Origin: Bryobacteraceae bacterium
GTDB lineage: Bacteria > Acidobacteriota > Terriglobia > Bryobacterales > Bryobacteraceae
Length of the DNA stretch: 52,297 nt
Direction: 5' to 3'
Assembly: GCA_025056865.1 (NCBI GenBank)
Contig: JANWVO010000021.1
Location: 1 to 52,297, forward strand
Under the pieces are notes generated by a model. It had not been told where the DNA came from. It was given only the letters and a program-made list of their open reading frames with translations, and did not search any database. Positions 5,995 through 30,099 of this stretch are shown one piece after another. Numbering within the stretch: the first letter of the stretch is position 1; each line of letters begins with the position of its first letter. The position numbers were made by a program, and so were the translations under genes.

Positions 5995-6023
5995 GAAATT
6001 TTCTTTCTCGTCTTAGAATCCGG

Positions 6024-6052: not shown

Positions 6053-6058
6053 GTGGGC

Positions 6059-16052: not shown

Positions 16053-16225
16053 ACGTGGCTGATCCCCTCTCACGGTACCTGAAGCGGGGCGCGGAAGGGA
16101 AGGGGCGCCGTCACAGCGGGTGTGAGAGAAATTTTCCTTTTGTTTTTCAGCGGTTGCAACGGAACGGCAGGGAAATGTTTGCAGCCCCGGGCAAGCTCGA
16201 AGCCGGCGGGGGGATTTGGATCCTT

Positions 16226-16576
16226 ATGGCAGCACGTCAGACGACGAAGAAAGCGGCCCGCAAGAGGCCGCAGCCAGGGAAGGCAACGCGGGAAGCGCCG
16301 GCGAAAACGACGAAGCGAGCGGCAGAGAAGGCGCCGGAGCCAAAAGACGCCGGCGAGACGAAGCCGACGAAGAGGCGGACTGCGAAGAAGCTGGATCGCA
16401 AGAAGCTGGGCGAGATGGTGGACCGGATGCTCCTTCAGCTGGCCGAGCGTGTCGAAGAAGGCGAGTGCACGATCACGACCAGCGAAGGGATGAAGCTGAT
16501 CCAGTTGCGGGAGGCGCTCGGGCTGGAGCAGCCGAGCGCCGTGAAGGTGGAGTGGGTGGAGCCGAAAGGGGAATGA
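16226..16576 (+). CDS. Lys/Ala-rich DNA-binding-like protein, possible terminase small subunit
   Basis: A 116-residue protein. Residues 1-60 are a histone H1-like, Lys/Arg/Ala-rich tract (AARQTTKKAARKRPQ and similar); residues 62-116 form a compact helical part (KKLGEMVDRMLLQLAERVEEGE) ending in an acidic tail. It overlaps the large terminase gene by four bases (ATGA), the usual place for a terminase small subunit. A small subunit would recognise DNA and stimulate TerL, but a basic disordered N-terminus is unusual for one. It may instead be a nucleoid-like DNA-binding protein. ATG 16226 is used; upstream in-frame starts would add low-quality sequence. Confidence 0.6.
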   Translation: MAARQTTKKAARKRPQPGKATREAPAKTTKRAAEKAPEPKDAGETKPTKRRTAKKLDRKKLGEMVDRMLLQLAERVEEGECTITTSEGMKLIQLREALGLEQPSAVKVEWVEPKGE

Positions 16577-17856
16577 AAGTCCGGCGGTCCATTCCGTACG
16601 CGCCCCTGCCGTCGCAGCGGAAATTTCACGAGCTGACGGCGAGATTCAAGGGGTTTTCGGGGCCGATTGGTTCCGGAAAGAGCCAGGCGCTGTGTCACGA
16701 GGCGCTCAAGCTGGCTTACCTGAATCCCGGCAGGACGGGGCTGATCGGAGCTCCGACATACCCGATGCTGAGGGACGCGACACAGGCGGCGCTGTTTGAA
16801 GTGATGAGACAGAGCGGGATCCCGTTCGAGTTCAACAAAGCAGAAAACCAGGCGGTGCTGAAGGACACGCAGTCGAAGATCCTGTTCCGGTCGCTGGACG
16901 AATACGAGCGCCTGCGCGGGACGAATCTGGCGTGGTTCGGCGTGGACGAGCTGACCTACGCGACAGAGGAGGCGTGGGTGCGCCTCGAGGGACGACTGCG
17001 GGACCCGAAGGCGCAGCGGCTGTGCGGGTTCGCCGTGTGGACACCAAAGGGCTTCGACTGGGTGTGGGAGAGGTTCATCCACAAGCCGGTGGAGGGGTAT
17101 GCGTGCGTTCAGGCGCAGCCCTTCGAGAACCGCTACCTCCTCGAGAAAGTCCCGGACTTCTACGAGCGGCTGAAGCACAGCTATGACGAAACGTTCTACG
17201 CACAGGAAGTGCTGGGCGAGTATCTGAATCCGGCGCAGGGGCTGGTGTACCACGCGTTCGACCGGCGGATCCATGTGCAGGAGATCGAGGCGGATCCGGA
17301 GCGGGAGCTGCTGTGGGCGCTGGACTTCAACGTGGATCCGATGTCGAGCGTTGTGGTGCAGGAGAAGGACGGGCAGTTCTTCGTGATCGACGAAATCGTG
17401 CTGCGGCGGGCGAGCACGCGAGAGGCGTGCGAGGAGTTCGCGCGGCGGTACGGCGGCTGGAAGGCAGGGCTGGTGATATACGGCGATGCATGCGCGTCGC
17501 ATCTTCAGACCACAGGGACGACAGACCGGGAAATGATCGAGCAGTTTTTCGCCGAGCGCGGCGAGAGACCGTCTTACCGGATCCCGAGGAAGAACCCGCC
17601 GGTGCGGGAGCGCGCGTCGCTGGTGAACGCGAAGCTGAAGTCGGCGGCTGGCGAGGTGGGGCTGCTAGTGCATCCGCGGTGCAAGGAGCTGATTCTCGAT
17701 TTCGAGAGAGTCCAATGGGCCGAAGACAGCAGCGAAATCGACAAAGCGAAGGACCCGCGGCGGACGCATCTGAGCGATGCACTGGGATACCTGCTGTGGG
17801 CGCGATGCCAGGCGGAGCCGGCGGCGGGCGAACGGATGGAACGGCTGTACTGGTGA
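16573..17856 (+). CDS. terL: Phage-type terminase large subunit
   Basis: A 427-residue DNA-packaging motor. The N-terminal ATPase has Walker A GPIGSGKS (residues 30-37) and Walker B ending in FGVDEL with Asp125-Glu126. The C-terminal RNase H-like nuclease has three spaced acidic residues: Asp251 in ALDFNVDP, Asp305 in IYGDACAS and Asp402 in HLSDALGYLLW. All catalytic landmarks look intact. It overlaps the preceding gene by four bases and is followed ten bases later by the portal gene. The gene is in the first position of the head-tail module. Confidence 0.93.
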   Translation: MKVRRSIPYAPLPSQRKFHELTARFKGFSGPIGSGKSQALCHEALKLAYLNPGRTGLIGAPTYPMLRDATQAALFEVMRQSGIPFEFNKAENQAVLKDTQSKILFRSLDEYERLRGTNLAWFGVDELTYATEEAWVRLEGRLRDPKAQRLCGFAVWTPKGFDWVWERFIHKPVEGYACVQAQPFENRYLLEKVPDFYERLKHSYDETFYAQEVLGEYLNPAQGLVYHAFDRRIHVQEIEADPERELLWALDFNVDPMSSVVVQEKDGQFFVIDEIVLRRASTREACEEFARRYGGWKAGLVIYGDACASHLQTTGTTDREMIEQFFAERGERPSYRIPRKNPPVRERASLVNAKLKSAAGEVGLLVHPRCKELILDFERVQWAEDSSEIDKAKDPRRTHLSDALGYLLWARCQAEPAAGERMERLYW

Positions 17857-17866
17857 GGGTGAAACG

Positions 17867-19246
17867 ATGGAGCACATCAACCGCGAGCACGCGGAATATC
17901 AGGCGTGGAAGACGATCTGGCCGAAATACCGCGATCTGTACACGGGCGGGGAACAGTTCACTTCGAACGCGGACCGCTACCTGATTCCGCGTCAGAAAGA
18001 GCCGGCGGCGGTCTACCGGGAGCGGGTGAGCCGGGCGTTTTATGAAAACTACATCGGCTCGATCATCGACTGGTATGCGGCGACGCTGTTCCGGCGGGAG
18101 CCGATCCTGACGTTCGAGGGCCGGGACGAGGCGGCAAGGCGGTATTTCAACGAGCTGGCCGAGGACTGCGACCGGCGGGGGTCGTCGCTCAGCGATTTCT
18201 TCCGCAGGCAGGTGGTGGAAGCGCTGGTGATGGGGCGCAGCTACATCGTCATCGACTTCCCGAAGCGGACCCGGCCGGCAGGCAGCAGGGCAGAAGAGGA
18301 CGCGATGGGGCTGTCGCGGGGGTACTTCAGCGAGTATCCGGCGGAGAGCGTGATCAACTGGCAGAAGGACGAGCGCGGCGAGTACGAGTGGGTGGTGCTG
18401 CGGGGGGAGCGGGAGGTCTTCGACGAGACGGGCGGAGGGAAGCGCGTCCTCCGACAATGGGTGAAATACGACCGGCACCGGTATGAACTGTGGCGCCAGG
18501 TACAGGAGGGCATGAAACAGGGGCCGGCCACGCTGGAGGAGGAAGGCCTGCACGGGCTGGCAGGGATCGGGCGCGTGCCGGTGTTCGAGTTCACGCTGGG
18601 GGACGGGCTGTGGCTGATGAACAAGGCGGCTTCGTTGCAGCTTGAACACTTCAACAAATCAAACGCACTGGCGTGGGCGCTGACGATGGGGCTGTTCGCG
18701 ATGCCGGTGATTTACAGCGACAGCGAGTTCAAGCAAGTGGTTGGCGAGAGCTACTACGTGAAGCTCGGCAAGGACGACCGGTTCGGATGGACCGAGCCGG
18801 AGGGGCACGTTTACCGGATCGCGCTGGAGAATATCGACCGGCTGAAGGAAGAAATCTACCGGGTGTGCTACATGCTGCACCAGGCAGGCGGTGCGATGTC
18901 GAAGAACGCGGCGCTGACGGGAGTGAGCAAGCAGCGCGACTATCTGGTGACCCAGGAAGTCCTTCGCGGGATGGGCGACCGCGTGAAGGACATGATGAAG
19001 AGGCTGCTGCGCACGCTGGCGGAAGCCAGACAGGACGAGATTGCGATCGGCGTGGCAGGGCTTGACGAATTCGACATCGGAGAGTTTTCGAGCGAGCTGG
19101 AGGATGCGGAGCGGCTGTTGCGGCTGGGGGTGCCCTCGCCAACGCTGCGAGCGGAGGTCCAGAAGAAGCTCGCCATGAAGTATCTCTGCGACGCGAGCCA
19201 GGAGGTGAAAGACAGGATCGCGCGAGAGATCGACGCCGGGCAATAG
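17867..19246 (+). CDS. Phage portal protein
   Basis: A 459-residue protein of the SPP1 gp6/DUF4055-like portal type. Features: N-terminal helices with YRDLYTGGEQF, then ENYIGSIIDWYAATLF typical of the clip/stem entry, a beta-rich wing (residues 150-230) and a long C-terminal helical crown region with LKEEIYRVCYMLHQAGGAMSK near residue 330. Twelve copies would form the DNA entry channel and dock TerL. Start ATG 17867 has a GGTGA site. Position between TerL and a scaffold-like gene supports the call. Confidence 0.85.
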   Translation: MEHINREHAEYQAWKTIWPKYRDLYTGGEQFTSNADRYLIPRQKEPAAVYRERVSRAFYENYIGSIIDWYAATLFRREPILTFEGRDEAARRYFNELAEDCDRRGSSLSDFFRRQVVEALVMGRSYIVIDFPKRTRPAGSRAEEDAMGLSRGYFSEYPAESVINWQKDERGEYEWVVLRGEREVFDETGGGKRVLRQWVKYDRHRYELWRQVQEGMKQGPATLEEEGLHGLAGIGRVPVFEFTLGDGLWLMNKAASLQLEHFNKSNALAWALTMGLFAMPVIYSDSEFKQVVGESYYVKLGKDDRFGWTEPEGHVYRIALENIDRLKEEIYRVCYMLHQAGGAMSKNAALTGVSKQRDYLVTQEVLRGMGDRVKDMMKRLLRTLAEARQDEIAIGVAGLDEFDIGEFSSELEDAERLLRLGVPSPTLRAEVQKKLAMKYLCDASQEVKDRIAREIDAGQ

Positions 19247-19283
19247 CCGCGGCGAAAACAAACCACGACAAGCGAGGAGGGAC

Positions 19284-19874
19284 ATGGAGCAGGCACAGCA
19301 CGAAGAGACGCGTGCGTCCGCAGGCGCGCAGGCGGACGAAATCCGCAACGTGGTGCGGAGCGTAATTGAGGAATATCTGGATCTGCAAAAGCGTGCGAGC
19401 GAGCCGGCCTACAAGGCCGAGCTGGAGGAAGAACGCAAGCGGCGCGAGCAGCTCGAGCGCCGGCTGAACGAGCTGATCGAGGAGAACAAACGCAGCCGGC
19501 AGATGGCGGAGGAGAGCGACAGGCATGCGCAGATCCGGAGCGAGCTCCAGCGGCTCGGGGTGTCGAAGATCGATCTCGCTTTCAAGATCGTGAAGGACGA
19601 CATCGTCCGGGCGCCGGACGGGTCGCTGGTAGCGAAAACCCCGGAAGGAGAGAAGAATTTCCGCGAATATCTGTCGAGTTTCGTGCACGAGAATCCGGAG
19701 TTTCTGCCGGCGCGGATCGCCGGCGGCAGCGGAGTAGTGAGTCCGCCAAAGACGGCGTCCGGGGTGGGCGTGATCGACCTGGAGAAGATCCGGCCCGGAA
19801 TGAGCCGGGAGGAGTTGCAGAGGATCCGGGAGCAGATTTCCCAGGTGGCTCTGCAAAGCCTAAAGGGTGAATAG
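19284..19874 (+). CDS. Scaffold-like coiled-coil protein of the head module
   Basis: A 196-residue acidic protein. Residues 35-90 are a continuous charged coiled coil (AELEEERKRREQLERRL and following), and the C-terminus has a second short helix. No protease motif is seen. Portal-scaffold-capsid is a common gene order; scaffolds direct shell curvature and leave before DNA packaging. The start has a strong GAGGAGGG site. The assignment rests on composition, length and position. Confidence 0.7.
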   Translation: MEQAQHEETRASAGAQADEIRNVVRSVIEEYLDLQKRASEPAYKAELEEERKRREQLERRLNELIEENKRSRQMAEESDRHAQIRSELQRLGVSKIDLAFKIVKDDIVRAPDGSLVAKTPEGEKNFREYLSSFVHENPEFLPARIAGGSGVVSPPKTASGVGVIDLEKIRPGMSREELQRIREQISQVALQSLKGE

Positions 19875-19937
19875 CGCGGAGGCCGGAAGCCGCCGCGGAG
19901 GCGAGGCAGAAGAACAAGCAAGGAGAGGAAAGGGAGA

Positions 19938-20849
19938 ATGGCAGCAATCACTTCCGCCAATCTGGCGAACGCGATTGTGAAACTGGTGGCCGTGGACGCG
20001 CTTCCGGCGCTGATGGGCCACCTGGTGATGGGCAACCTGGTGAACCGGGACTTCGAGCCGCAACTCGCACAGGCCGGGGACACCGTGAACGTTCCGATTC
20101 CGCCGACGATGGTGGCGAACAACATTGCCGAGGGCGGAACTGTCCAGACGCAGAACCCGAACGTGGAGACGGCGCAGATCGTGCTGAACACGCACGCCGA
20201 GGCGACCTTCCAGATTCCAGACGTCACGAAGGTCATCGCGGTGCCGGATCTGCTGCGGCTCTACATGGAGCCGGCAATGATCGCACTGGCGGAGAAGGTG
20301 GAGAGCGACCTTTTGGGACTCTACAGCCAGTTTACGGCGAACACGCCTGTGGGCACCGGCGGCACGGCACTGACGGAAGCCGTGGTGGACGCCGCCGAGA
20401 CGGCGCTGTTTAACGCGAAGGTGCCTGCGAGCGAGCCGAAATACCTGGTGGTGGACGGCAACGCGTACTCGCAGCTGCGGCAGATCCCGCGGTTCAGTGA
20501 ATACCGGACGGCTGGCGAAGCGGGACTCCGGGCGCTGATCGACGGCAGCATCGGGCGGCTGAAGGACTTTTACGTGTTCCGGTCGCAGTTCGTGAAGAAG
20601 ACGGGTTCTTCGCCGGTGACGACCAACAACATCGCTTTCTCGCGGAATGCGATCGGGCTGGCGATCCGGCGGCTGCCGAAGCCGCTGCCGGGAACGGGCG
20701 CGATTGCGGAGTACGCCGAGGTGGGCAATTTCGGCATCCGCGTCGTGATGAGCTACCAGCCGAACACGCTGGCGCAGCAGTTCACAGTGGACATCCTGTA
20801 TGGCGTGGGCGTGCTGCGCAACAACCATGGCGTGCAGGTGCGGAGCTGA
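19938..20849 (+). CDS. Major capsid protein, P22 coat-like
   Basis: A 303-residue protein. It begins with an N-terminal helix (ITSANLANAIVKL), then GDTVNVPIPPTM and the ATFQIPDVTKVIAVPDLLRLYMEPAM region, followed by a nucleotide-free alpha/beta body with PKYLVVDGNAYSQLRQIP and a C-terminal beta strand region ending TVDILYGVGVLRNNHG. This pattern is seen in P22 gp5-type coat proteins with the HK97 fold. It has a strong GGAGAGG/AAGGGAG ribosome site, fitting a highly made protein, and a GC hairpin follows its stop. Confidence 0.85.
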   Translation: MAAITSANLANAIVKLVAVDALPALMGHLVMGNLVNRDFEPQLAQAGDTVNVPIPPTMVANNIAEGGTVQTQNPNVETAQIVLNTHAEATFQIPDVTKVIAVPDLLRLYMEPAMIALAEKVESDLLGLYSQFTANTPVGTGGTALTEAVVDAAETALFNAKVPASEPKYLVVDGNAYSQLRQIPRFSEYRTAGEAGLRALIDGSIGRLKDFYVFRSQFVKKTGSSPVTTNNIAFSRNAIGLAIRRLPKPLPGTGAIAEYAEVGNFGIRVVMSYQPNTLAQQFTVDILYGVGVLRNNHGVQVRS

Positions 20850-20859
20850 TCCAGCAGTT

Positions 20860-20881
20860 GGGGCGGCCCCCGGGCCGCCCC
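20860..20881 (+). other. GC-rich hairpin after the capsid gene
   Basis: GGGGCGGCCC and GGGCCGCCCC form a perfect 10-bp inverted repeat with two intervening bases (9 bp plus a 4-base loop in practice). There is no T-run, so it is more likely an RNA-stabilising or partial attenuating hairpin than an intrinsic terminator. Its place, 11 bases after the capsid stop, suits raising capsid message over downstream genes. Confidence 0.6.
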
Positions 20882-20924
20882 GAAACCGAACAGCCCAGGC
20901 CCAGGAAAGCCGGAAAGGAATGAT

Positions 20925-21239
20925 ATGGATCTGAAGCGTTACTACCAGGAATTGCGGAAGAAAGAGGCGGAGATCGAAGGCAAGGATGTCTACGTCGTCA
21001 GCCTGGACACGGCAGACGGCGGGCGCGCGGGCGTCATCACACAGGTTCCGAAGGAAATCGGCTGCAAGCTGATTGTCGAGGGGCGCGCCCGGCTGGCAAC
21101 AGCCGAAGAAGTGGAGAAATTCGAAAAAGAAGAGGCGGAAAAGCGGGCGGAATTCCAGAGCCAGGAATTCGCGCGGAAAATCCAGGTGCAGGTGGTGGCC
21201 GAGCCGCGGCAGGGGCGCGGCGGGAAAGAGCGGTCATAG
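20925..21239 (+). CDS. Small protein of the head module, unknown function
   Basis: A 104-residue protein. Residues 18-65 look like a small beta domain (KDVYVVSLDTADGGRAGVI), and residues 66-85 are a charged helix (AEEVEKFEKEEAEKRAEF). Proteins of this size directly after the capsid gene are often head decoration or connector proteins, but no family was recognised. It has a GGAAAGGAA ribosome site. Confidence 0.65.
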   Translation: MDLKRYYQELRKKEAEIEGKDVYVVSLDTADGGRAGVITQVPKEIGCKLIVEGRARLATAEEVEKFEKEEAEKRAEFQSQEFARKIQVQVVAEPRQGRGGKERS

Positions 21240-21251
21240 GAGGGAGCAGGC

Positions 21252-21992
21252 ATGGCGCTGCTGGTGGACGGCGACATCAACAGTCTGGGCGACCTGCGCG
21301 AGTGGGACAGCAGCATTCTGGATACGGCTGACGGGGAACGCATCGACCTGAACGCCAAGCTGCGCCGTGCGCAGGCGGAAGTAGAAGAAGAGATCGAGCG
21401 GTTCCTGCGAGAGCAGGAGCGCGGAACCCTGGATCAAGTCGTGGTGGACCGGGCGCTGCGCCACTGGCATGCGCTGAAGACGCTGGAGGCGACATACCGC
21501 GACGCCTATTTCAACCAGCTTAACGACCGCTATGGCGAGAAATGGAAGCTCTATCTGAGCCTGGCTGAACGGCAGGAAGAGCGATACTTTGACGCGGGCG
21601 TAGCCATCGTGTTCCAACCCCTGCGCCGTCCGGCGGAGTTGGAGGCGTCGTTGACCGAAGGCGAACTGGCGCCTACGACTTACCGCTTACAGGCGACCGC
21701 GGTTGACGGGATGGGCCGCGAAAGCGCGCCGAGTCCGGTGCAGGTAGTGTCAAGCCCGGTGCCCCATTCGCTGGAGGTGCGGCTTCCCTGGCTTCCGGCG
21801 GGGGCATCCGGCTGGAACATCTATGCGGGTTCTGCGGATGGTCCGCTTGCGCTTCAAAACGATGCGCCACTCGCCGGAGCTGCCGTGTGGCGGCCGGGAC
21901 GCGAGGGTCTGCGGAGCGGCCGACCGCCCGGCGACGGACAGCCGCCGGATGAAGTGATCCGGGCCGGTGGTTCGGTGCTGCTGCGGGGGTGA
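21252..21992 (+). CDS. Head-tail connector-like protein with C-terminal fibronectin-III-like module
   Basis: A 246-residue protein. Residues 1-125 are helical (LRRAQAEVEEEIERFLREQE and the RALRHWHALKTLEATYRDAYFNQLNDRYGEKW segment, given here only as landmarks), a pattern like helical adaptor proteins. Residues 132-220 are beta-rich with YRLQATAVDGMGRESAPS and WNIYAGS, which matches by eye a module in the tail-tip protein at 26066-29977. The two-part plan suggests an adaptor decorated with an Ig-like domain. It overlaps the next gene's possible GTG start. Confidence 0.6.
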   Translation: MALLVDGDINSLGDLREWDSSILDTADGERIDLNAKLRRAQAEVEEEIERFLREQERGTLDQVVVDRALRHWHALKTLEATYRDAYFNQLNDRYGEKWKLYLSLAERQEERYFDAGVAIVFQPLRRPAELEASLTEGELAPTTYRLQATAVDGMGRESAPSPVQVVSSPVPHSLEVRLPWLPAGASGWNIYAGSADGPLALQNDAPLAGAAVWRPGREGLRSGRPPGDGQPPDEVIRAGGSVLLRG

Positions 21993-21994
21993 GC

Positions 21995-22492
21995 ATGACT
22001 TTTACGACCCGAGAAGTGGTGGACAGGATCCTCGAGCTGCTGAGCGGAGAGGGGGGACTGGCCGAGGGCCTGGAGCAGATCAAGGCGGCTTACGGACAGG
22101 ATCCGGCACGGCCTGATCCCGCGACCGTACGTGTACTGAAAGCGGCACCGGAATTTGCCGAGAGGGCGTTGGGAGCGCGTTACCCCGAAGTGCGGGTTTA
22201 CTGGGACCGGATCCGGAGCCGGCCCACAGAAAAATTCCGGCGTTTTTCTGGCGAAATGCGGGTGGTTCTCGAGGCGAGGGTTTCTCAGGACCGGCTGGAA
22301 GGAATCACCGAGAGGCTTCAATATTACTGCGATGCGCTGAGGGATGTGCTGGAGCGACGTAGCGGCTGCATTGGCCCCGGGCTCTATTTGAGCGGTGAAT
22401 ACGAGGTGCAGGTCGAGCCAGTGAAGAAAGGCGGAAGCCAGTTCGTGCAGGCCGCGAAGGTGACGTGCACGGTGATCATAAACCGGACATGA
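21995..22492 (+). CDS. Neck or tail-terminator-like protein of the particle module
   Basis: A 165-residue protein, helix-rich at the N-terminus with a mixed C-terminal half ending in the strand FVQAAKVTCTVIINR. Size and position between the connector and the tail tube-like gene match tail-terminator or stopper proteins. No motif is decisive. ATG 21995 has GGGGGTGAG upstream; a GTG at 21989 overlapping the previous stop is an alternative. Confidence 0.55.
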   Translation: MTFTTREVVDRILELLSGEGGLAEGLEQIKAAYGQDPARPDPATVRVLKAAPEFAERALGARYPEVRVYWDRIRSRPTEKFRRFSGEMRVVLEARVSQDRLEGITERLQYYCDALRDVLERRSGCIGPGLYLSGEYEVQVEPVKKGGSQFVQAAKVTCTVIINRT

Positions 22493-22507
22493 AAAGGGAC
22501 GGGGAAA

Positions 22508-23674
22508 ATGGCGTGCTACATTTCGACGCGAGACAATCGATATTACGCGGCAGTGGAGGCTGAATACGGGCGCGTGGCACCAGTGACTGCGGCGCACCGC
22601 CTCAGCGGAGTGCGGCTGGACGTCGTGCAGAGATGGGAGGAGCCGCGGCGGCGCGACAAGACGGGCACGAGGACGTTTCAGGGCATTGCGGGCAGGCTGC
22701 GGAAGCACACGACCTTTGCCCTCACAACTTATCTCTACGCGCGGGAGGCGCCGACGGCATTGCCGCGGTGCGCAGCGCTGGTGGAGTGCGCGATGGGAGG
22801 GGCAGCCAGGGTGACGCCGGACGGGCTGCCCGTCGTGCAGGTGGAGGGTGTGCAGGCCAGGTTCGGCTCGGCACATGGTCTTGAGCCTGGCGATGCGATC
22901 ACGTTTGGAGGAGAGCTGCGGTTTGTAACTGCGTGCCCAGATCCTCTAACAGCCTGGCTGAGCGCTCCGCTGACAAGGAACGCCGGGGTTGCGGCCGGGG
23001 GCGCCGTTACCTACCGTCCTGCCTCCAGGCTGCCGAGTGCGAGCCTGTACGATTACTGGGCTCCTCATAGCGCTGTGCAACGCATTCTGCGCGGGTGCGT
23101 GGTTGATGAGCTGGAGCTGGAGCTCAACGGGGATTTCCACGAACTGACATTCCGGGGAGCGGCTGCGGGGATCGTCAACAGTGCGAGTTTCGAGCCGGGC
23201 GAAGGCGGGTTGAGCAGTTTTCCTGCGGAGCCGGAAGTGCAGCAGTTGATGGATTTGCCCGTTCCAGGACACCTGGGGCAGGTGTGGATCGGCACCAATG
23301 CGGCGCCGCTGGGGACATTGGCATCGGCGCGGATCCGAATCAGAAACCACATCGACATGCGGTGGAGAGATTTCGGGTTACTGGCTCCGCGCTGCGTCAC
23401 GCCAGGCGACCGCGAGGTGCGGATCGATCTCGAGATCTACAGCAACGACAGCGAAGTGTGCGAGGCCATCCATGCAAGTGCGGATCGTCGTGAACCCATG
23501 GCCCTCATGGTTCAAATGGGTGAAATTCCGGGCGCCCTGTGCGGGATCCATGTGGCGAATTTTGTTCCGGCTCCTCCTGAGTTTCTGGACGGAGAGGAGC
23601 GCCTGCGCTGGAGGCTCAGGGGATGCCAGGCCCAGGGATTCCGAGACGATGAGGTCTACCTTGCCTTTGGATGA
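22508..23674 (+). CDS. Tail tube-like structural protein
   Basis: A 388-residue protein, beta-rich, Cys-poor in its body. It has three visible parts: residues 1-85 (with RTFQGIAGRLRKHTTFALTTYLYA), an inserted beta module around 88-175, and a C-terminal part (residues 190-388) beginning VDELELELNGDFHELTFRG and ending RLRGCQAQGFRDDEVYLAFG. The paired halves suggest a duplicated tube domain as in trimeric tail-tube proteins. It lies directly upstream of the frameshifting chaperone genes, the conserved site of the major tail protein. Confidence 0.6.
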   Translation: MACYISTRDNRYYAAVEAEYGRVAPVTAAHRLSGVRLDVVQRWEEPRRRDKTGTRTFQGIAGRLRKHTTFALTTYLYAREAPTALPRCAALVECAMGGAARVTPDGLPVVQVEGVQARFGSAHGLEPGDAITFGGELRFVTACPDPLTAWLSAPLTRNAGVAAGGAVTYRPASRLPSASLYDYWAPHSAVQRILRGCVVDELELELNGDFHELTFRGAAAGIVNSASFEPGEGGLSSFPAEPEVQQLMDLPVPGHLGQVWIGTNAAPLGTLASARIRIRNHIDMRWRDFGLLAPRCVTPGDREVRIDLEIYSNDSEVCEAIHASADRREPMALMVQMGEIPGALCGIHVANFVPAPPEFLDGEERLRWRLRGCQAQGFRDDEVYLAFG

Positions 23675-23687
23675 GGAGCGACGGGAG

Positions 23688-24053
23688 ATGAACTACGAGA
23701 GCTCCGCGACGCGAGAGAGCACGGTATGTCCGGGCGTCCGATTCGTGGTGGTGCGACCATCACTGGCGAAGCGGGCGGAGATTACGGCGCGAGTGCGGCA
23801 ACTCCTGGCGGAGCTGGAATACCGCTCCGCCGGGGATACGCTGGAAGACCGGCTTGCAGCGGCCGAGCTGGAGAGCCGGATCGATGCGGCATACATTGAG
23901 TGGGGGCTTCTGCGGGTGGAAAACCTGCGGATTGACGGCGAAGAGTGTACGGCCCGCCTGCTGATCGAACGCGGGCCGGAAGAGCTGGCGAGGGAGATCG
24001 CTTCCGCCATCCGCAGCGAATGCCGGCTGAGCGGGGAAGAACGAAAAAACTGA
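23688..24053 (+). CDS. Tail assembly chaperone, short (zero-frame) product
   Basis: A 121-residue, mostly helical acidic protein (KRAEITARVRQLLAELEYRS, LREN-type segments) ending ERKN-stop. Its last codons form the slippery sequence A-AAA-AAC, so some ribosomes shift -1 and make a longer protein (next entry). This is the arrangement of lambda G/GT and of RcGTA, where the short form coats the tape measure and the long form recruits tube subunits. Start ATG 23688 follows GAGGAGCGACGGG. The chaperone role is inferred from position and the frameshift. Confidence 0.7.
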   Translation: MNYESSATRESTVCPGVRFVVVRPSLAKRAEITARVRQLLAELEYRSAGDTLEDRLAAAELESRIDAAYIEWGLLRVENLRIDGEECTARLLIERGPEELAREIASAIRSECRLSGEERKN

Positions 24054-24388
24054 TCCTCGCACTCCATTACTTTGCAGGAAATACCGCCGGGTGGCGGTGC
24101 GAGGATTGCCGGCGGCAGGGGCTGGAGGAGAAGCGGCGGTGCGGTTGGCGACCCGGCGGAGGCGCGGGCGGACGGATTGTCTGGGCGGGGCATGGATCGG
24201 CAACCGAGCAGTGCCCGAAGACAGCCATCCGTGGCGAGAGCGTGGCGTGGCTTGAGCTGTGGGTTACCTGGCGGGAGTGCGGCAAGCCCCTCACCGGGCA
24301 TTGGAGCGCGAAGGATCTGGAGGCGATGGCGGTGCTCGAGAGGGAGTGGGAGAGGATGCAGGATGAAGAGCGAAGACTTCGAGATTGA
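23688..24388 (+). CDS. Tail assembly chaperone, -1 frameshift fusion product
   Basis: Ribosomes that slip one base back at 24044-24050 read on from CTG at 24050 to the stop at 24386-24388. This gives about 233 residues: the chaperone domain joined to a 112-residue extension. The extension opens KLILALHYFAGNTAGW and carries several Cys (CEDCR, RCGW, EQCPKT), possibly a metal site. Without the shift this stretch has no usable start of its own near its beginning, yet it is open and protein-like throughout, which supports the fusion. It overlaps the next gene's start by 26 bases. Confidence 0.75.
24044..24050 (+). promoter_or_regulatory. -1 ribosomal frameshift slippery heptamer A-AAA-AAC
   Basis: In the zero frame the codons are CGA-AAA-AAC-TGA, so the heptamer A-AAA-AAC has the exact X-XXY-YYZ phasing needed for tandem slippage. 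A stop codon follows immediately. Both tRNALys and tRNAAsn re-pair in the -1 frame. Confidence 0.85.
24053..24106 (+). promoter_or_regulatory. Stem-loop stimulating the -1 frameshift
   Basis: ATCCTCGCAC (24053-24062) pairs perfectly with GTGCGAGGAT (24097-24106), a 10-bp stem closing a 34-base loop that itself contains a smaller GC hairpin (CGCC-GGGT-GGCG). The stem starts two bases after the slippery site; opening of the first two or three pairs would leave the usual 5-base spacer. It lies within coding sequence of the -1 frame. Confidence 0.75.
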
Positions 24389-24920
24389 CCGCAGGCTTGC
24401 GGAGGCGGTTCAGGCTGCTGCCGGCAGGCGCAGCGCAAAGGCTGAGACTATTGCGGAGGCAATCCTGGCCAGCAGGCCAGGGGCCGGAGAGGGCGGGGAC
24501 AGCCCCACCAGATTGATTGACGCGCTGACGGCGCGTCTGGAAGAGTTGGTCCGGCCTGTAGCGGCGCCGTCCTCGTCATGGCAGGTTGCGGCGGCAGGGA
24601 TAAATCCGCTGATTGGGGGATTGCTGCGTCTATTCGGCGGGGGGAATTCCCATGTTACGCTTCAGTTGCCTGCCGCAGCGCGACCCGAGGCTTCACGGTA
24701 CGAGGCTGCATTCGAGCCCAGCGGGCAAGGGATCTTCCTGACAGACCGCGACCAATTCGGCAGAATGCGGCCCGCTGGCAGCCTGGCGGCAGCGCCGATC
24801 GTGGTGCAGGTGGACGCCATCGACAGCCGCTCGTTCCTTGAAAGGGCGCCAGAAATCGCGGAATCGCTGAGGAAGATCCTGCTTGAATCCGACGGAATCC
24901 GGGCAGTTCTGGATGAATAA
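24363..24920 (+). CDS. Candidate short tape-measure or tail protein
   Basis: A 185-residue protein in the place where tailed particles carry the tape-measure gene. Residues 1-65 are helical and charged, residues 80-98 hold a hydrophobic Gly-rich segment (AGINPLIGGLLRLFGGG), and the C-terminus has a helix with ERAPEIAESLRKILLES. A normal tape measure is 600-2000 residues; at roughly 1.5 angstrom per residue this one would specify a tail under 30 nm. It could also be an unrelated minor tail protein. ATG 24363 overlaps the chaperone extension by 26 bases. Confidence 0.5.
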   Translation: MKSEDFEIDRRLAEAVQAAAGRRSAKAETIAEAILASRPGAGEGGDSPTRLIDALTARLEELVRPVAAPSSSWQVAAAGINPLIGGLLRLFGGGNSHVTLQLPAAARPEASRYEAAFEPSGQGIFLTDRDQFGRMRPAGSLAAAPIVVQVDAIDSRSFLERAPEIAESLRKILLESDGIRAVLDE

Positions 24921-24931
24921 AGGCGGCAGGC

Positions 24932-25288
24932 ATGTTACGGTTTCCCCTTTTAAAGAGTGGGGTGAGCGTGCAATACCCGCTCCAAAGGACGGTGGAATCT
25001 CCCATCCGCGTTTATACGTTCCTCGATGGAAAAGAGCAGAGATTTCCTGTGCGGCGTGGACGAAAAAGCTGGATCGTGCACCTCGATCAGCTTGACGAGC
25101 GGGAGGCGGCAGACATCGAAGCCTTTGCGAGAGCGCATCTGTTGACACTGGAGCCGTTCGAATTCATTGATCCCGGAACAGGGGTTGTGCACGGCCCCTG
25201 CCGGCTGGCTGGCAGCAGTTTCGCGGTACATGGCACCGGGCTAAAGAGGCTGGGAACCAGGCTCTTCATCGTGGAGCAAGGAGATTGA
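24932..25288 (+). CDS. Distal tail-like protein, first of a tandem pair
   Basis: A 118-residue protein. The opening LRFPLLKSGVSVQYPLQR matches the next gene's opening YFPVLRSGVIVQYPVSR, and both continue with a Trp/Leu strand, an acidic 'LD..DEREAA' helix and F-x-F near residue 85. In siphovirus-like particles the distal tail protein follows the tape measure and joins tube to tip. Family membership is inferred from order and length. It ends one base before the paralogue's ATG. Confidence 0.6.
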   Translation: MLRFPLLKSGVSVQYPLQRTVESPIRVYTFLDGKEQRFPVRRGRKSWIVHLDQLDEREAADIEAFARAHLLTLEPFEFIDPGTGVVHGPCRLAGSSFAVHGTGLKRLGTRLFIVEQGD

Positions 25289-25289
25289 C

Positions 25290-26069
25290 ATGTACTTTCC
25301 GGTGTTGCGCAGCGGCGTAATTGTCCAGTACCCAGTTTCGAGATCGACTGATTATGGGCTTGCAGAAGCCGAATCCCCGGGTGGCGCTTCCTGGCGGTCC
25401 TCGACCGGGAGGGTGCCGGTCCGGCGCTGGCGGCTCGAACTGGACGAGATCTCCGATGAGGAGGCCGCGACACTCGCGTCCTTCTATGAAGACTGCCGCG
25501 GTGGCTGGCGGACGTTCTGCTTCCCTGAACCGCTGGGCAATCTGCTGGTCTGGAGCGAGGATCTGGCAAGACCTGTCTGGGCGAAGAGTCCGGGAACTTC
25601 CATCATCCGAACTGGAACGACTTCAGAGGAGCCAGCGGAGTTTCTGATCGTCAATGCAAGCGGGGCTCCCGGCGGGGTGTGGCAGGAGGTGGATATGGCG
25701 CCGGGTGCGGCACTCTGCTTTTCCTGCGAGATTCAGGGATCCGCCGGACAGGAGGCCGTGATCATGGCCGCAGGGAACAGGAGGCAGCTGCTGACCACAG
25801 ACGCATGGCGTCTTGACTATGTCACGGGGGTGAGCGGCGGGGGGGCGCAACGCGTGGGGATCGAGCTAGCCGCGGGTGCAACAGCCCGGGTGCGGTGTTT
25901 GCAAGCAGAGATCCAGGTGATGCCTTCCGAGTATCAGCCGACGTATGAGACCGGCGGAGTCTTTCCGAAGACACGATTCGCACAGGATGGGCTGTCGATC
26001 GTGTCCATCGCCCCCGGCAGAAACCGGGCGATAGTGATCCTGGAGAGCCTGATGGAGAGCGGGTTGTGA
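25290..26069 (+). CDS. Distal tail-like protein with C-terminal extension, second of a tandem pair
   Basis: A 259-residue protein. Residues 1-95 repeat the fold of the preceding gene (WRLELDEISDEEAATLASFYEDCRG is the matching helix, cited only as a landmark), and residues 96-259 are an extra beta-rich domain that looks like a carbohydrate-binding jelly roll (PGGVWQEVDMAPGAALCFSCEI). Such added domains are common on distal tail proteins that bind cell-surface sugars. Overlaps the next gene by four bases (GTGA). Confidence 0.6.
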   Translation: MYFPVLRSGVIVQYPVSRSTDYGLAEAESPGGASWRSSTGRVPVRRWRLELDEISDEEAATLASFYEDCRGGWRTFCFPEPLGNLLVWSEDLARPVWAKSPGTSIIRTGTTSEEPAEFLIVNASGAPGGVWQEVDMAPGAALCFSCEIQGSAGQEAVIMAAGNRRQLLTTDAWRLDYVTGVSGGGAQRVGIELAAGATARVRCLQAEIQVMPSEYQPTYETGGVFPKTRFAQDGLSIVSIAPGRNRAIVILESLMESGL

Positions 26070-29000
26070 GCCTGATTGATGTCCTCAAGTCCCAAGAAGC
26101 GACGGAGACGCCGCTCCTGCTGTTTGAATGCATCCTGCGCAACGGCCTCGTTGAGAGATGGTGCACCCATCGAGTCCGCGTGGAAGGCCATGAATACGAG
26201 CCCAGAGTGCTGCGGCACAGCGGCTTTGAGATGCGCCTGGGCGCTGAGGATGGATTAGATCATGGCGCCAGGATGGCCGTAACTCTGGCGAACACGGATG
26301 GAAGGATCTCACAGCTTGACGCGACGATCGGATGGCGCGGTGCAAGGTTACGCGTGCGGTTCGGCTTCTTCGACCTGGAGAGCGGCGAGCCGGTGTCTGA
26401 ACTGGCTGCGGTATTCATGGGAATTGCCAACCCTGCCGAGGAGCTGACCGAGCGGGAAGCGCGCCTGAGCTTCCTGAACCGGCTGAGTCTCCAAAGGCTG
26501 CAGGTGCCTTCCATCCGAATCCAGAGCCGGTGCCCCTGGCGTTTTCCAGAGACGAGGGAAGAGAGGGAAGAGGCAGTTGCCGGAGGGAGCGCGGGAAGAT
26601 ACTCTTCGTTCTTTCGCTGCGGTTATTCCGCAGATGTGGAAGGAGGGCGGGGCAACCTGAACGGGGGCGAGCCGTACGAGTCCTGCGGATTCACTCGGGA
26701 AGACTGCCGGGCCAGAGGCATGTTCGATGCGGACGACCGAGGGAGGAAGACCGCACGGTTTGGCGGTTTCGCTTTCCTGCCGGCGAGCGTGCTGGTCCGC
26801 CCGCATGGAGCGCGGGAGAGTCAGTGGTCGGATCCGGTGGATGGACGCGGGCGTCCCAATGACGCCGTGCCCCTGGTGTACGGGACAGCATGGATTCAGG
26901 CACCAGTCATTTTCGCGCGCAACGACGGCAATCTGACGCATTGCGAGGTTCTCCTTGGACTAGGGCCGATTGAAGGGGTCCGCAAGGTCATCGCCAACGG
27001 CGTGGAAATTCCAATGGCGGATGATCGGAAGGACATGAGCGGGACCGGCTGGTACAGCGTGCTCACCGTGGGAGAGCGCGACGGCGGCTTCAACGCCGGC
27101 TTCACAGATGCTGAGGGCCGGCCGCAGGGAGACCCGCATGGAAGCATGGCGTGCCTGTCGGTGGTCCTGCCGAACCAGATTGTAGAGCGGGGCCGCCTGC
27201 CTCGAGTGGAAGTCCTGCTTGACGGTCTGAAGCTGCCGCGGTACAGCGAAAGCGGCCAACTGGTGGATGTCGTATTCACAAGAAACCCGGCTTGGGTTCT
27301 GCTGGACCTGTTGCGGATGTCGGGTTGGACCAAAGAGGAGATCGATTTCGGCAGTTTCTGGCGGACTGCGCAGTATTGCGACGAATTTATTCCGCAGCGG
27401 GCGCCGGGAGGCGAGCAGCTACTGGGTCCGCGATTCGAGGTGAACCTCGCGCTTACCCGCCGAAAAAGCCTCAGCGAAGTGGTGAGAGGCATCAGGACAG
27501 CGGCTGCATTGCTGATTACACTTGATGCGGAGGGCCGGGTTTCACTCCGCCCTGAGACAACCCTTGCACGGGAGGCTCCCACAAAACGGCCATCCAGCAA
27601 CGCGACGGGACCGATTCTGGGGGGCTGGCCTGCCTACGAATTCGGGGACGGATCAGGGGGGATATCGGGGATCCTGCGGCGACACGGCCGGGATTCCACA
27701 TTTCGCCTCTTCCGGCGCTCCTCCGCAGAAGTGCCCAATCGGCTCATCGCGGAATTTGCAGATTCTTTCCGGGATTACGCTCCTGACACCCTCGCCCTGA
27801 CGGATTATCGCGATGCACAACTGCAGGGTTGCGAAGTGACCGCTCCGCTCGGCGCACTGGGCCTGCCACATTTTGATCAGGCTGCCAGAATTCTCCGGCT
27901 CAATCTGGAGAAAAACACTGCTGGCAATCAGTTCATCGAGTTCGAGACGACGATGCAGGCTTTCGGCCTGCGTCCTGGCGACGTGATTGCAATTACGCAT
28001 CGCAGAGAGGGACTGGAAAGAGCTCTTTTCCGAGTTCTGAAGATCGTGGCCGGGCTCAACTTTGAAACGGTCCGGCTTGTGGCACAGAGGCACGAAGACC
28101 GCTGGTATGAAGCTGCAGCAGAGGGTGATGCTGGAGATTACCGGGACTCTTCATGGAGTGCGGGAATCCCTCGTTCGCTGGCGGGGCGGAGAATTCATCC
28201 CGACGGCCGGGAGGAATTCGATGCGGAAGTCCGCGGCGGAGGCGAGGAGGCACCGATCGAGGTTGCCGTCCGGTTCACGCCGCCCGCACGTCCGGCGACC
28301 GGCGCGCCAAGGCCCCCGAGTGTGAGTCTGGCGGCCCGGGTGCGCAGCGGCGAAGGGAACCTGGTCGGGGGCAGGACTTTGTACTACGCGGTGACCTGCT
28401 CGGACGAGTTGGGCAGAGAGTCGCCGCCATCATTCGTTATTGAGGCGCGCCTTCCCGGCGCTGCTACCGGGTATGCAGTAGAACTGAGCGGCATCCGGTG
28501 CAGCAAGGATGCGTCGGCTGTAACCATCTACAGAGGCGAAAGTCCATCGCTGCTGCGGAGGATCGGAACCGGCAGTGCCAGCGCGCTGACGTTCGTAGAC
28601 AACGGATTGCCGGCTGAGCCTGTTCCGCCTCCCGACCCGAATTATGACCATGCGAGGTTCCAATGGCGGTTTGAGCTGTTGCCAGAAACCGAGGCAGACC
28701 AATTTGGGGCGACTGTGATCGGCAACTCCGGACTTGGTTTGTTGCCGGACGAATACCGGGGCTGCGCGGTCCGGATCGTCAGCGGCAAAGGGGCCGGCCA
28801 AGAGCGGATCATCGAAGGCCACAACGCAACGGAGCTGCGGGTGTCGCCGGCATGGCGTGTTCCTCCGGACCAATCCAGCCGGTTTGTTGTTGCCGAATCA
28901 GGCTGGCGGCCGGCCGGAACAACGCGGTCTGGAGAAATCCGTTTCCTCGTCCCACAAGGAAGCGCGGGCACAGTACAATTTCTCGGACTGGCCGTGAGCG

Positions 29001-29977
29001 GACGTGGCGCTGAAAGCCCGGAGAGCGATGCGCTGCTGGGCCGGGTTGAGTTGACGGATACAGCAGCAGGCGATTCCGACGTCCCGCCGAAGCCGGATTT
29101 CGGCATCGCAGCGGCGGGAGAAGGCGGATTTCTGGTCAGTGGCATCGGCTTCCCGACGCTGCAGAACACGAGGACGATCCGCACAGGAACCTTGACAGTT
29201 CACTATTGGAATGAACTGGAAAGCCCCAGTCCGTGGCACCTGGCGGCCGATTTGCCAGCCGAAGAGTCAGTGATCTTCGTGAATCCAGCCCTGGGCGCAG
29301 GACCGGGCGACCTTTTGCAAATCGGCCGCGAACTCCTGAGGATCCTGGAAGTGAGAAACGCCGGGGCTGAGCTGCTGGTGGAGCGGGGAGTTCATGACAC
29401 TCCCACGGCCACCCACTCCGGCGGTGAAGCGATCTTCCCCCTGAAGCGACTTGTCGCGGTGTTTCCTTTCCAGAAGGGGTTTTTCGGGAGTCCGGCCAGC
29501 GGAAGTTACAATCAGCGGGTTGATCTTCCGTGGGCGAGAATTGCGGCGGCAGAGTTTTATGTTACGAACCAGCGCGGAAGCAGCCCGACCGCATTCGAAG
29601 CGTACACCAGCACGGCGGAGGCGGGGCTCAGGACAATGTCCGGCGGACAGTACACGATTCAGTACGACGGGCCTCTGGCTGTGATGAGCAGCGTGGCTCC
29701 CCCGCTCATCGTCGAGCGGCTTCGAGCCGTTCGGGACATTCAGGCCCACGTGGATCAGCCCCCTGTGGGGGAGCCAGTGCAGGTGCGGGTCCTTGTCGAC
29801 GGAGTGGCATATGCCGACCTGGTCATTCCGCCTGGAGCGCACGCCTCCGAAGTTGTGTCCTGTTTCGGGAGGCCCCCGCTGGCAGAGGGGGCCCTGCTGC
29901 ATGTGGCTATTGTGTCGGTTGGTACTGCAGTGGGAAGCTACCCGGGCCGCGGCCTGACCGTGACGATCAGACTCTAG
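26066..29977 (+). CDS. Tail-tip/hub protein: gpL-like Fe-S domain fused to gpJ-like hub and Ig-like modules
   Basis: A 1303-residue protein starting at GTG 26066. Residues 1-150 are a beta domain; residues 150-230 hold four Cys (156, 185, 207, 214) followed by KTARFGGFAFLP. This resembles the C-terminal Cys domain of lambda tail-tip protein L, which binds an iron-sulphur cluster and ends in an RFGGF-like motif. Residues 230-700 look like a hub/baseplate region (EVLLGLGPIEGVRKVIANG is a gpJ-type segment). Residues 755-850 are an Ig/FnIII-like module shared with the protein at 21252-21992; the rest is beta-rich. This is the last gene of the module, 45 bases before the tRNA. Confidence 0.7.
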   Translation: MSLIDVLKSQEATETPLLLFECILRNGLVERWCTHRVRVEGHEYEPRVLRHSGFEMRLGAEDGLDHGARMAVTLANTDGRISQLDATIGWRGARLRVRFGFFDLESGEPVSELAAVFMGIANPAEELTEREARLSFLNRLSLQRLQVPSIRIQSRCPWRFPETREEREEAVAGGSAGRYSSFFRCGYSADVEGGRGNLNGGEPYESCGFTREDCRARGMFDADDRGRKTARFGGFAFLPASVLVRPHGARESQWSDPVDGRGRPNDAVPLVYGTAWIQAPVIFARNDGNLTHCEVLLGLGPIEGVRKVIANGVEIPMADDRKDMSGTGWYSVLTVGERDGGFNAGFTDAEGRPQGDPHGSMACLSVVLPNQIVERGRLPRVEVLLDGLKLPRYSESGQLVDVVFTRNPAWVLLDLLRMSGWTKEEIDFGSFWRTAQYCDEFIPQRAPGGEQLLGPRFEVNLALTRRKSLSEVVRGIRTAAALLITLDAEGRVSLRPETTLAREAPTKRPSSNATGPILGGWPAYEFGDGSGGISGILRRHGRDSTFRLFRRSSAEVPNRLIAEFADSFRDYAPDTLALTDYRDAQLQGCEVTAPLGALGLPHFDQAARILRLNLEKNTAGNQFIEFETTMQAFGLRPGDVIAITHRREGLERALFRVLKIVAGLNFETVRLVAQRHEDRWYEAAAEGDAGDYRDSSWSAGIPRSLAGRRIHPDGREEFDAEVRGGGEEAPIEVAVRFTPPARPATGAPRPPSVSLAARVRSGEGNLVGGRTLYYAVTCSDELGRESPPSFVIEARLPGAATGYAVELSGIRCSKDASAVTIYRGESPSLLRRIGTGSASALTFVDNGLPAEPVPPPDPNYDHARFQWRFELLPETEADQFGATVIGNSGLGLLPDEYRGCAVRIVSGKGAGQERIIEGHNATELRVSPAWRVPPDQSSRFVVAESGWRPAGTTRSGEIRFLVPQGSAGTVQFLGLAVSGRGAESPESDALLGRVELTDTAAGDSDVPPKPDFGIAAAGEGGFLVSGIGFPTLQNTRTIRTGTLTVHYWNELESPSPWHLAADLPAEESVIFVNPALGAGPGDLLQIGRELLRILEVRNAGAELLVERGVHDTPTATHSGGEAIFPLKRLVAVFPFQKGFFGSPASGSYNQRVDLPWARIAAAEFYVTNQRGSSPTAFEAYTSTAEAGLRTMSGGQYTIQYDGPLAVMSSVAPPLIVERLRAVRDIQAHVDQPPVGEPVQVRVLVDGVAYADLVIPPGAHASEVVSCFGRPPLAEGALLHVAIVSVGTAVGSYPGRGLTVTIRL

Positions 29978-30003
29978 GCGAGGTTGCCGGCCCGTGGTTG
30001 TGC

Positions 30004-30009
30004 TATAAA
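30004..30009 (+). promoter_or_regulatory. -10 box for the tRNA-Val gene
   Basis: TATAAA, 14 bases upstream of the mature 5' end, giving a short leader. A matching -35 at 17-base spacing is weak (AGGTTG at 29981-29986). It lies after the tail-tip stop, so the tRNA probably has its own promoter. Confidence 0.4.
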
Positions 30010-30022
30010 GGAAGAGAGCTGA

Positions 30023-30099
30023 GGGCGCGTAGCTCAGCTGGTTAGAGCGCCTGCTTCACACGCAGGAGGTCATAGGTTCAAGTCCTGTCGCGCCCACCA
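30023..30099 (+). tRNA. tRNA-Val (anticodon CAC)
   Basis: A full cloverleaf: acceptor GGGCGCG pairs with CGCGCCC, the D arm begins AGCTCAG, the anticodon stem CCTGC/GCAGG encloses TTCACAC (anticodon CAC, reading GUG), and the T arm has GGTTCAAGTCC. The encoded 3' end is A-CCA. It sits 45 bases after the particle module, a usual neighbourhood for integrated elements, but no copy of its 3' end was seen near 16.1 kb. Confidence 0.95.

What the first reader, a model, noticed from the sequence alone, without database searches (positions are those of the whole stretch)
16226..29977. Compact tailed-particle module without integration, lysis or replication genes: candidate GTA-like or domesticated element
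About 13.8 kb on one strand holds TerS-like, TerL, portal, scaffold-like, coat, connectors, tube-like, chaperone with frameshift, short tape-measure candidate, two distal-tail-like and a tip/hub protein. No integrase, repressor, replication, holin, endolysin or tail-fibre gene is seen in the flanks (proline dehydrogenase and tRNA). Order and size recall RcGTA (about 15 kb, order given from memory), and all visible catalytic residues of TerL are intact, which argues against simple decay. Composition is like that of the flanking genes.
Basis: partly seen in the sequence, partly recalled or inferred. Interest (0 to 1): 0.85.

Follow-up and report, generated by a model that had tools for sequence, protein, structure and literature searches.

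The report
Order-wide GTA-like element in Acidobacteria
The window carries a set of phage head-and-tail genes that a whole order of soil bacteria has largely kept, passed from parent to offspring and protected by selection, which suggests that these bacteria own a tamed virus particle, most likely for passing DNA between cells.

Summary
The module is real: 14 co-directional genes (16226-29977: TerS-like to a lambda-J-like hub), with no integrase, phage repressor or lysis gene recognised beside it. It is not a lone decaying prophage. In the Acidobacteriota order Bryobacterales TerL matches 152 of 200 genomes and the coat 152 of 200; in a phylum-wide sample the coat matches 4 of 396, only two strongly, both in this family. 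In 39 of 39 complete loci the core is collinear. Element and rpoB trees of 36 genomes share 21 of 33 splits, without well-supported conflict. In the closest pair dN/dS is 0.02-0.29. A -1 slippery heptamer is kept in 37 of 38 loci. The tape measure is shrunk to about 210 aa, as in RcGTA. Best reading: an independently domesticated, GTA-like viriform; packaging and transfer of host DNA are inferred. Complications: coat genes were exchanged with phages, and one genus keeps the particle genes without TerS/TerL. A 2025 paper probably saw the element as 'proviruses'; my searches found no report calling it a GTA.

The parts
16226..16576 (+). g1, TerS-like small basic protein (by position and size only)
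   Evidence: no family match; tblastn relatives in 14 of 40 loci; dN/dS 0.29
16573..17856 (+). g2, terminase large subunit (427 aa)
   Evidence: phrog_2 E 6e-39; 152 of 200 genomes of the order; motifs invariant in 21 rows
17867..19246 (+). g3, portal
   Evidence: phrog_145 E 2e-54; 39 of 39 complete loci
19284..19874 (+). g4, scaffold-like, charged protein
   Evidence: position between portal and coat; weak phrog_368; 39 of 39 loci
19938..20849 (+). g5, P22-type major coat protein (303 aa)
   Evidence: phrog_283 E 1e-44, PF11651 2e-16; 152 of 200 genomes
20925..21239 (+). g6, small head/connector-region protein
   Evidence: phrog_2616 E 0.004; 38 of 39 loci
21252..21992 (+). g7, head-closure / connector
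   Evidence: phrog_8040 'head closure Hc3' E 4e-7; 39 of 39 loci
21989..22492 (+). g8, connector or tail-terminator candidate
   Evidence: position; 38 of 39 loci
22508..23674 (+). g9, tail tube
   Evidence: Phage_tube_2 E 1.5e-4; 39 of 39 loci
23688..24053 (+). g10, tail assembly chaperone, frame 1 (by position and frameshift)
   Evidence: gene prediction; -1 heptamer at its 3' end in 37 of 38 loci; no family match
24044..24050 (+). slippery heptamer A AAA AAC for -1 frameshift
   Evidence: sequence; conserved
24050..24388 (+). g10', -1 frame extension of the chaperone
   Evidence: open -1 frame
24363..24920 (+). g11, truncated tape measure (185 aa)
   Evidence: C-terminal motif shared by 31 relatives; two relatives match positions 1174-1210 of tape-measure phrog_3779
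24932..25288 (+). g12, distal-tail-like protein
   Evidence: position; 38 of 39 loci; no family match
25290..26069 (+). g13, distal tail protein with carbohydrate-binding-module-like domain
   Evidence: NF048003 GTA_spike_fiber E 4e-6, below cut-off; AlphaFold pLDDT 91.5, CBM16/22/4-like matches
26066..29977 (+). g14, hub / central tip protein (1303 aa)
   Evidence: phrog_31 lambda J-type E 3e-16; PF13550; weak GTA_megatron NF048004 E 3e-4
31960..34992 (-). second locus: TIM-barrel tail protein with carbohydrate-binding-like modules (1010 aa); link to the element inferred
   Evidence: PF23845 E 2.5e-15; best fold match phage N4 tail chain 9yf5; the family was found in each of the 41 element-bearing genomes searched for it (23, 21, three in both)
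30845..31825 (-). conserved neighbour of the TIM gene (zinc-ribbon and membrane segment by eye), role unknown
   Evidence: next or next-but-one to the TIM gene in 7 of 7 genomes of genus g1 and g11 examined; no family match

Best explanation
A domesticated siphophage structural module, inherited vertically in Bryobacterales, that works like a gene transfer agent. Proposed steps. (1) Host control switches the block on in some cells (inferred). (2) TerS/TerL cut and pump DNA through the portal into a P22-type head (enzyme motifs shown, action inferred). (3) A short tube is built, with its length set by the shrunken tape measure and the frameshifted chaperone (genes and conservation shown). (4) Hub, distal proteins and the TIM-barrel protein bind cell-surface polysaccharide and open the way into a neighbour (fold similarity shown, role inferred). 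(5) The cargo is mostly host DNA, because the element has no replication or integration genes and is spread by descent (inferred). Release would need lysis genes elsewhere in the genome (not looked for systematically, none found).
For: Distribution: TerL in 152 of 200 genomes and 64 of 75 genera of the order; coat in 152 of 200 and 66 of 75 genera; 4 of 396 in the phylum-wide sample, two of them weak and outside the family. Synteny: TerL, portal, scaffold, coat, head closure, tube, g13 and hub in 39 of 39 complete loci, same order and strand. Phylogeny: 21 of 33 splits shared with rpoB, no conflict among splits with support of 95 or more. TerL and portal trees separate 41 and 40 elements from 12 and 13 related phages (support 1.0), which fits one domestication. 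Selection: dN/dS 0.02-0.29 for all 14 genes in the closest pair. Frameshift site kept. Isolated phages are at most 33% identical in TerL among the 20 hits listed. The longest element-type contig among the listed IMG/VR hits is 27.6 kb, against 66.6 kb for phage-type relatives. Tape measure 85-255 aa, median 212 in 31 relatives, against 944 aa in one related prophage; the parts given for RcGTA's add up to about 216 residues (PMC7296036, passages).
Against: No particle, packaged-DNA or transfer data. The coat tree is not purely vertical: phage coats nest among element coats (G010 with two phage contigs, support 99). Four genomes of genus g8, plus G054 and G194, have the block without TerS/TerL. 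About 39 of 200 genomes show neither coat nor a strong TerL match (my count; many are fragmented drafts). G054's block looks decayed; 5 of 37 hub genes are shortened (draft errors not excluded); one listed coat has an internal stop. In six other, more diverged pairs dN/dS runs from 0.01 to 0.85, highest for the tape measure and TerS. TerL and portal are richer, not poorer, in carbon than phage homologues and the coat is equal, unlike the amino-acid bias reported for RcGTA (PMC9662315, passages). No lysis or regulator locus was identified.
Confidence: 0.68

Rival explanations
1. A domesticated particle with a job other than DNA transfer: for example a tailocin-like weapon or a DNA-free delivery capsid, with the terminase kept only in some lineages.
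For: Genus g8 keeps portal to hub under purifying selection (portal dN/dS 0.07-0.08, coat 0.03-0.08 in two pairs with full-length genes) although the cluster starts at the portal in four g8 genomes and the TerL search found nothing in G018, G020, G050 or G061. Carbohydrate-binding tail parts.
Against: TerL is intact in most genomes and evolves more slowly than the tail genes. Tailocins lack coat, portal and terminase (recalled). All eight g8 genomes searched carry split terminases elsewhere that might act in trans, but so do 13 of 24 others.
Confidence: 0.17
2. A still-mobile satellite or defective prophage family whose helper functions lie elsewhere.
For: Flanks differ among genera. Coat exchange with phages. 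IMG/VR lists many such contigs as viral.
Against: Host-congruent tree; a single TerL match in 138 of the 152 positive genomes (my count); recurrent flank families are host genes; an M24 peptidase gene, with a Wzt-type ABC gene before it in eight of them, lies downstream in 9 of 24 genomes from eight genera, which fits an old shared site with later rearrangement.
Confidence: 0.1
3. Repeated, recent lysogeny by one host-restricted phage group that decays each time.
For: Related prophage-like regions exist in the same hosts (L351, L352, L354). A few damaged copies.
Against: The same gene content and similar gene lengths in 39 loci; no recurrent replication or lysis family beside the 26 examined; TerL and portal of elements separate from those of phages.
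Confidence: 0.05

Closest known systems
RcGTA and relatives (Rhodogtaviriformidae, Alphaproteobacteria)
   Same: One cluster of about 14 kb, single copy, vertical descent, scattered extra loci, a tape measure of about 210 aa, distal parts that look sugar-binding, no replication or integration genes in the cluster
   Different: P22-type coat with a scaffold-like gene instead of a prohead protease (RcGTA order recalled); separate TIM-barrel protein; only sub-threshold similarity to GTA_megatron and GTA_spike_fiber models; no cheap-amino-acid bias in TerL or portal
Bartonella and Brachyspira GTAs
   Same: Independently domesticated caudoviricete modules that are tied to a host clade (PMC9662315, passages)
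   Different: No homology was tested gene by gene here; different host phylum
'Group (i)' Bryobacterales proviruses of the Tunturi paper (PMC11924767, section 23 and search passages read)
   Same: Bryobacterales-specific, shared gene order, includes Ca. Solibacter usitatus Ellin6076 and Paludibaculum fermentans P105; probably this element
   Different: Described as proviruses; the parts read do not raise vertical descent, selection or a GTA role ('gene transfer' occurs 0 times in the main text). Identity of the sequences could not be checked here
Phage-type relatives in the same hosts (L351, L352, L354; IMG/VR contigs up to 66.6 kb)
   Same: Related coat (52-78% where present), TerL, portal, head closure, tube and chaperone
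   Different: Portal only 26-34% identical to the window, extra phage genes (methylases, dUTPase), 944-aa tape measure in L351

Membership tests
Gene transfer agent (viriform attributes of Kogay et al. 2022, PMC9662315, passages) | Genes for caudovirion-like particles | tested here: met
   terminase, portal, coat, connector, tube, hub by family match; chaperone and tape measure by motif
Gene transfer agent (viriform attributes of Kogay et al. 2022, PMC9662315, passages) | Fully endogenized in the host genome, often at several loci | tested here: met
   recurrent flank families are host genes; TIM-type tail gene at a separate locus in many genomes, its link to the element being inferred from co-occurrence
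Gene transfer agent (viriform attributes of Kogay et al. 2022, PMC9662315, passages) | Mostly vertical inheritance, co-diversification with the host | tested here: met
   21 of 33 splits shared with rpoB, no supported conflict, 36 genomes; exception: coat exchanged with phages
Gene transfer agent (viriform attributes of Kogay et al. 2022, PMC9662315, passages) | Packages mostly random host DNA | not testable with these tools
   needs sequencing of particle DNA
Gene transfer agent (viriform attributes of Kogay et al. 2022, PMC9662315, passages) | Head too small for the whole element | not testable with these tools
   head size unknown; element 13.8 kb plus the TIM gene
Gene transfer agent (viriform attributes of Kogay et al. 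2022, PMC9662315, passages) | Delivers DNA to other cells | not testable with these tools
   needs a transfer assay
Rhodogtaviriformidae (RcGTA-like) | Homologous core genes | tested here: not met
   GTA_megatron 18.5 bits against a cut-off of 800, GTA_spike_fiber 27.6 against 36; coat of P22 type
Rhodogtaviriformidae (RcGTA-like) | Proteins biased to cheap amino acids relative to phage homologues | tested here: not met
   carbon per residue higher in TerL and portal, equal in coat; 39-40 elements against 11-13 phages
Ordinary prophage | Integration, repressor, replication and lysis genes | tested here: not met
   window flanks (DnaB at 35.9 kb and LexA at 6.1 kb taken as host genes) and families recurrent in 26 neighbourhoods; genes found in one or two neighbourhoods only were not annotated

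The most novel reading that the evidence does not exclude
An ancient, order-wide gene-transfer system of Acidobacteriota that is a hub of capsid-gene exchange with resident phages. In at least one genus (g8) the particle cluster has lost its terminase yet stays under purifying selection, so it is either filled by a terminase acting in trans or has become a particle that works without packaging DNA.
Probability: 0.35. Interest if true: 0.88.

Novelty: new variant of a known kind. Interest (0 to 1): 0.8.

Why it matters
The review read here names GTAs outside Alphaproteobacteria in Brachyspira, Desulfovibrio and Methanococcus, and says that finding distant ones from sequence is an open problem (PMC11841831, part 1 of 5 read); a 2026 paper adds gut Oscillospiraceae and Ruminococcaceae (PMC12946183, passages). 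A single-origin, order-wide candidate in a dominant soil phylum gives another, independent comparative system with many genomes and at least some cultured members. It makes testable what is common to GTAs (short tail, loss of replication genes, scattered loci) and what is not (cheap amino acids). It also suggests that many 'viral' soil contigs in public collections are host genes of this kind.

Tried and rejected
LexA control: a 14-base string is shared by the regions upstream of lexA (5994-6007, one mismatch) and TerS (16127-16140) and, with up to 1 mismatch, occurs nowhere else in the 4.18 Mb genome. The pattern was taken from those two places, and lexA of the nearest relative G039 lacks it. 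Upstream of TerL it recurs with at most 2 mismatches in G039, G049, G030, G045 and G064, 5 of 40 loci. Not taken further.

tRNA-Val as attachment site: beside the hub only in three relatives of the genus and in G026, 4 of 39 loci. Rejected.

TIM gene as strictly either adjacent or detached: 20 of 20 genomes without an adjacent copy have a relative elsewhere, in G045 and G064 matched only in pieces. But at least 6 of 21 with an adjacent copy also have a detached-type one, some in pieces, and longer paralogues exist; of five genomes without a found coat, two have a TIM match. So the link is by co-occurrence, not exclusive.

phrog_2 as a terminase finder in genus g8: it picked up split terminases at other places, which are also common in genomes with an intact element TerL.

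A first rpoB comparison gave no correlation, because antisense frames had been picked; corrected (r 0.57, best of 1000 permutations 0.32).
Full report
WHAT IS THERE. Window 16226-29977 holds 14 genes on one strand: TerS-like, TerL, portal, scaffold-like, P22-type coat, four connector/tube genes, a frameshifted chaperone, a short tape measure, two distal proteins and a 1303-aa hub. On the left lie proline dehydrogenase and a penicillin-binding protein. GC content of the block (0.62-0.64) is close to that of its neighbours. Of the flanking ORFs scanned none matches an integrase or lysis family.

WHERE IT COMES FROM. The five named hits of a genome scan are MAGs labelled Bryobacteraceae, Bryobacterales, Acidobacteria, Ca. 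Solibacter usitatus and Arcobacter. The last is likely a mislabel, since that contig equals G030:C34 of the window's genus in length and match position. So the host order is Bryobacterales, Acidobacteriota.

HOW COMMON. TerL matches 152 of 200 genomes of the order and 64 of 75 genera; a handful of these matches are weak and phage-like (for instance G028, G054, G170, G194). The coat profile also matches 152 of 200. By my count of the two tables about 161 have one or the other. In a phylum-wide sample the coat profile matches 4 of 396, two of them weak and outside the family.

SAME BLOCK EVERYWHERE. Of 40 loci fetched, one is cut by a contig end. In the other 39, TerL, portal, scaffold, coat, head closure, tube, g13 and hub are present, collinear and on one strand; g6, g8, g10 and g12 are found in 38, the fast-evolving tape measure by tblastn in 31, TerS in 14 of 40. 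Gene lengths are nearly constant: coat mostly 303 aa, tube mostly 388-390, hub 1293-1317 in 32 of 37. I compared gene families around the element in 26 genomes. Those that recur in three or more and are not part of the element were annotated: Wzt-type ABC protein, M24 peptidase, short-chain dehydrogenase, enolase-like enzyme, TonB-type receptor, symporters and permeases, uracil-DNA glycosylase, sulfatase, redoxin, ilv genes and the like; LexA, in three neighbourhoods, is the only regulator. Families seen in one or two genomes were not annotated. The M24 gene follows the element in 9 of 24 genomes from eight genera, with the Wzt-type gene before it in eight of the nine, which fits an old common site.

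DESCENT. I compared rpoB (1217 columns) with five concatenated element genes in 36 genomes. Five of the 40 fetched genomes were left out because rpoB was missing (G065), partial (G036, G152), double (G161) or not searched (G083); the window genome was added. The trees share 21 of 33 splits, and none of the 16 and 17 splits with support of 95 or more conflict. TerL and portal separate 41 and 40 elements from 12 and 13 phage homologues with full support. The coat does not: two closely related phage contigs group with G010 (support 99), and four phage coats fall in a clade with those of G010, G065, genus g1 and genus g11 (support 100). So the capsid gene has passed between element and phages.

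SELECTION. In the closest pair (G000 and G039) dN/dS is 0.02-0.29 for all 14 genes, against 0.05-0.36 for flanking host genes; in six more diverged pairs it runs from 0.01 to 0.85, with the tape measure and TerS highest and dS often near saturation. Synonymous divergence in the closest pair rises from coat (0.5) to hub (3.2), which I cannot explain; recombination in the tail half is one option. The -1 heptamer stands at the end of the chaperone frame in 37 of 38 loci, directly before the stop in 35 and one codon earlier in two (36 AAAAAAC, one AAAAAAT).

SHORT TAIL. g11 keeps a hydrophobic stretch and the tape-measure C-terminal motif. Lengths are 85-255 aa, median 212 in 31 relatives. A related prophage in the same order has a 944-aa tape measure. 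The RcGTA paper gives parts that add to about 216 residues (PMC7296036, passages).

SECOND LOCUS. The TIM-barrel family lies directly after the hub, same strand, in 21 of 39 loci (20, one more). In 20 of 20 genomes without such a copy a diverged relative lies elsewhere, in two of them matched in pieces: in the window genome 2 kb away on the other strand, in G049 at 0.43 Mb against 4.41 Mb on a 4.86 Mb contig. DnaB lies near the TIM gene in G000, G039 and also G026, where the element is on another contig, so the closeness in the window may be chance. Of 21 genomes with an adjacent copy at least 6 also have a detached-type gene; of 5 genomes without a found coat 2 have a TIM match. The model (pLDDT 70) resembles a phage N4 tail protein and carbohydrate-binding modules; g13 (pLDDT 91.5) ends in a carbohydrate-binding-like jelly roll. 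Both point to polysaccharide on the target cell.

LOSS OF THE TERMINASE. In four genus-g8 genomes (G020, G050, G061, G187), and in G054 and G194, the cluster starts at the portal; in a fifth, G018, the contig begins inside the portal gene. In g8, g6 is not recognised either and G187's hub is split, but in G020, G050 and G061 portal to hub are otherwise present and under purifying selection. Split terminases occur elsewhere in all eight g8 genomes searched and in 13 of 24 others.

LIVING RELATIVES. Isolated phages are distant (TerL at most 33%, coat at most 30% among the 20 hits listed in each search). Among the 160 rows kept, the longest contig is 27.6 kb. Phage-type relatives with a portal only 26-34% identical reach 66.6 kb.

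PRIOR WORK. Eight searches of the paper library listed no paper that by title or abstract shown calls this element a GTA; subscription journals are mostly not held. PMC11924767 (section 23 and passages) describes Bryobacterales-specific proviruses that are probably the same. PMC5900883 (passages) lists predicted prophages in Solibacter and Bryobacter.

VERDICT. Domestication and vertical descent are well supported. The GTA function is the most economical reading of a kept terminase, short tail and lost replication genes, but it is an inference.

Noticed in passing
L417 (G061) 5946-7555, L416 (G020), L418 (G187), L419 (G189): Split terminases at separate places: a ~253-aa ATPase ORF (Terminase_6N) followed by a ~204-aa nuclease ORF (Terminase_6C), with no other phage gene recognised in the small stretches looked at; relatives of the ATPase in 21 of 32 genomes, up to ten matches in one, some weak. 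Function unknown.
   Followed up: partly
coat genes of L401, L410, L351, L352, L354, L408 against the element coats: Phages of the same hosts carry coat genes that nest among element coats, while portal and TerL do not: capsid exchange between a domesticated element and phages (support is high for L401/L410 and for the larger clade, low for L354/L408).
   Followed up: partly
21252-35000: Synonymous divergence between G000 and G039 is mostly above that of the flanking genes (0.5-1.0) over the tail half, thioredoxin and the TIM locus (1.1-3.2).
   Followed up: no
L032 (DYJN01000047.1): A contig of this genus is labelled Arcobacter in its public record; probably a mislabelled MAG.
   Followed up: no
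L053 (G013), between the tape measure and g12: About 3.5 kb of extra genes sit between the tape measure and g12 in this relative from another family.
   Followed up: no
6059-6721: LexA lies 10 kb upstream of the element in the window genome; no evidence that it controls it.
   Followed up: yes
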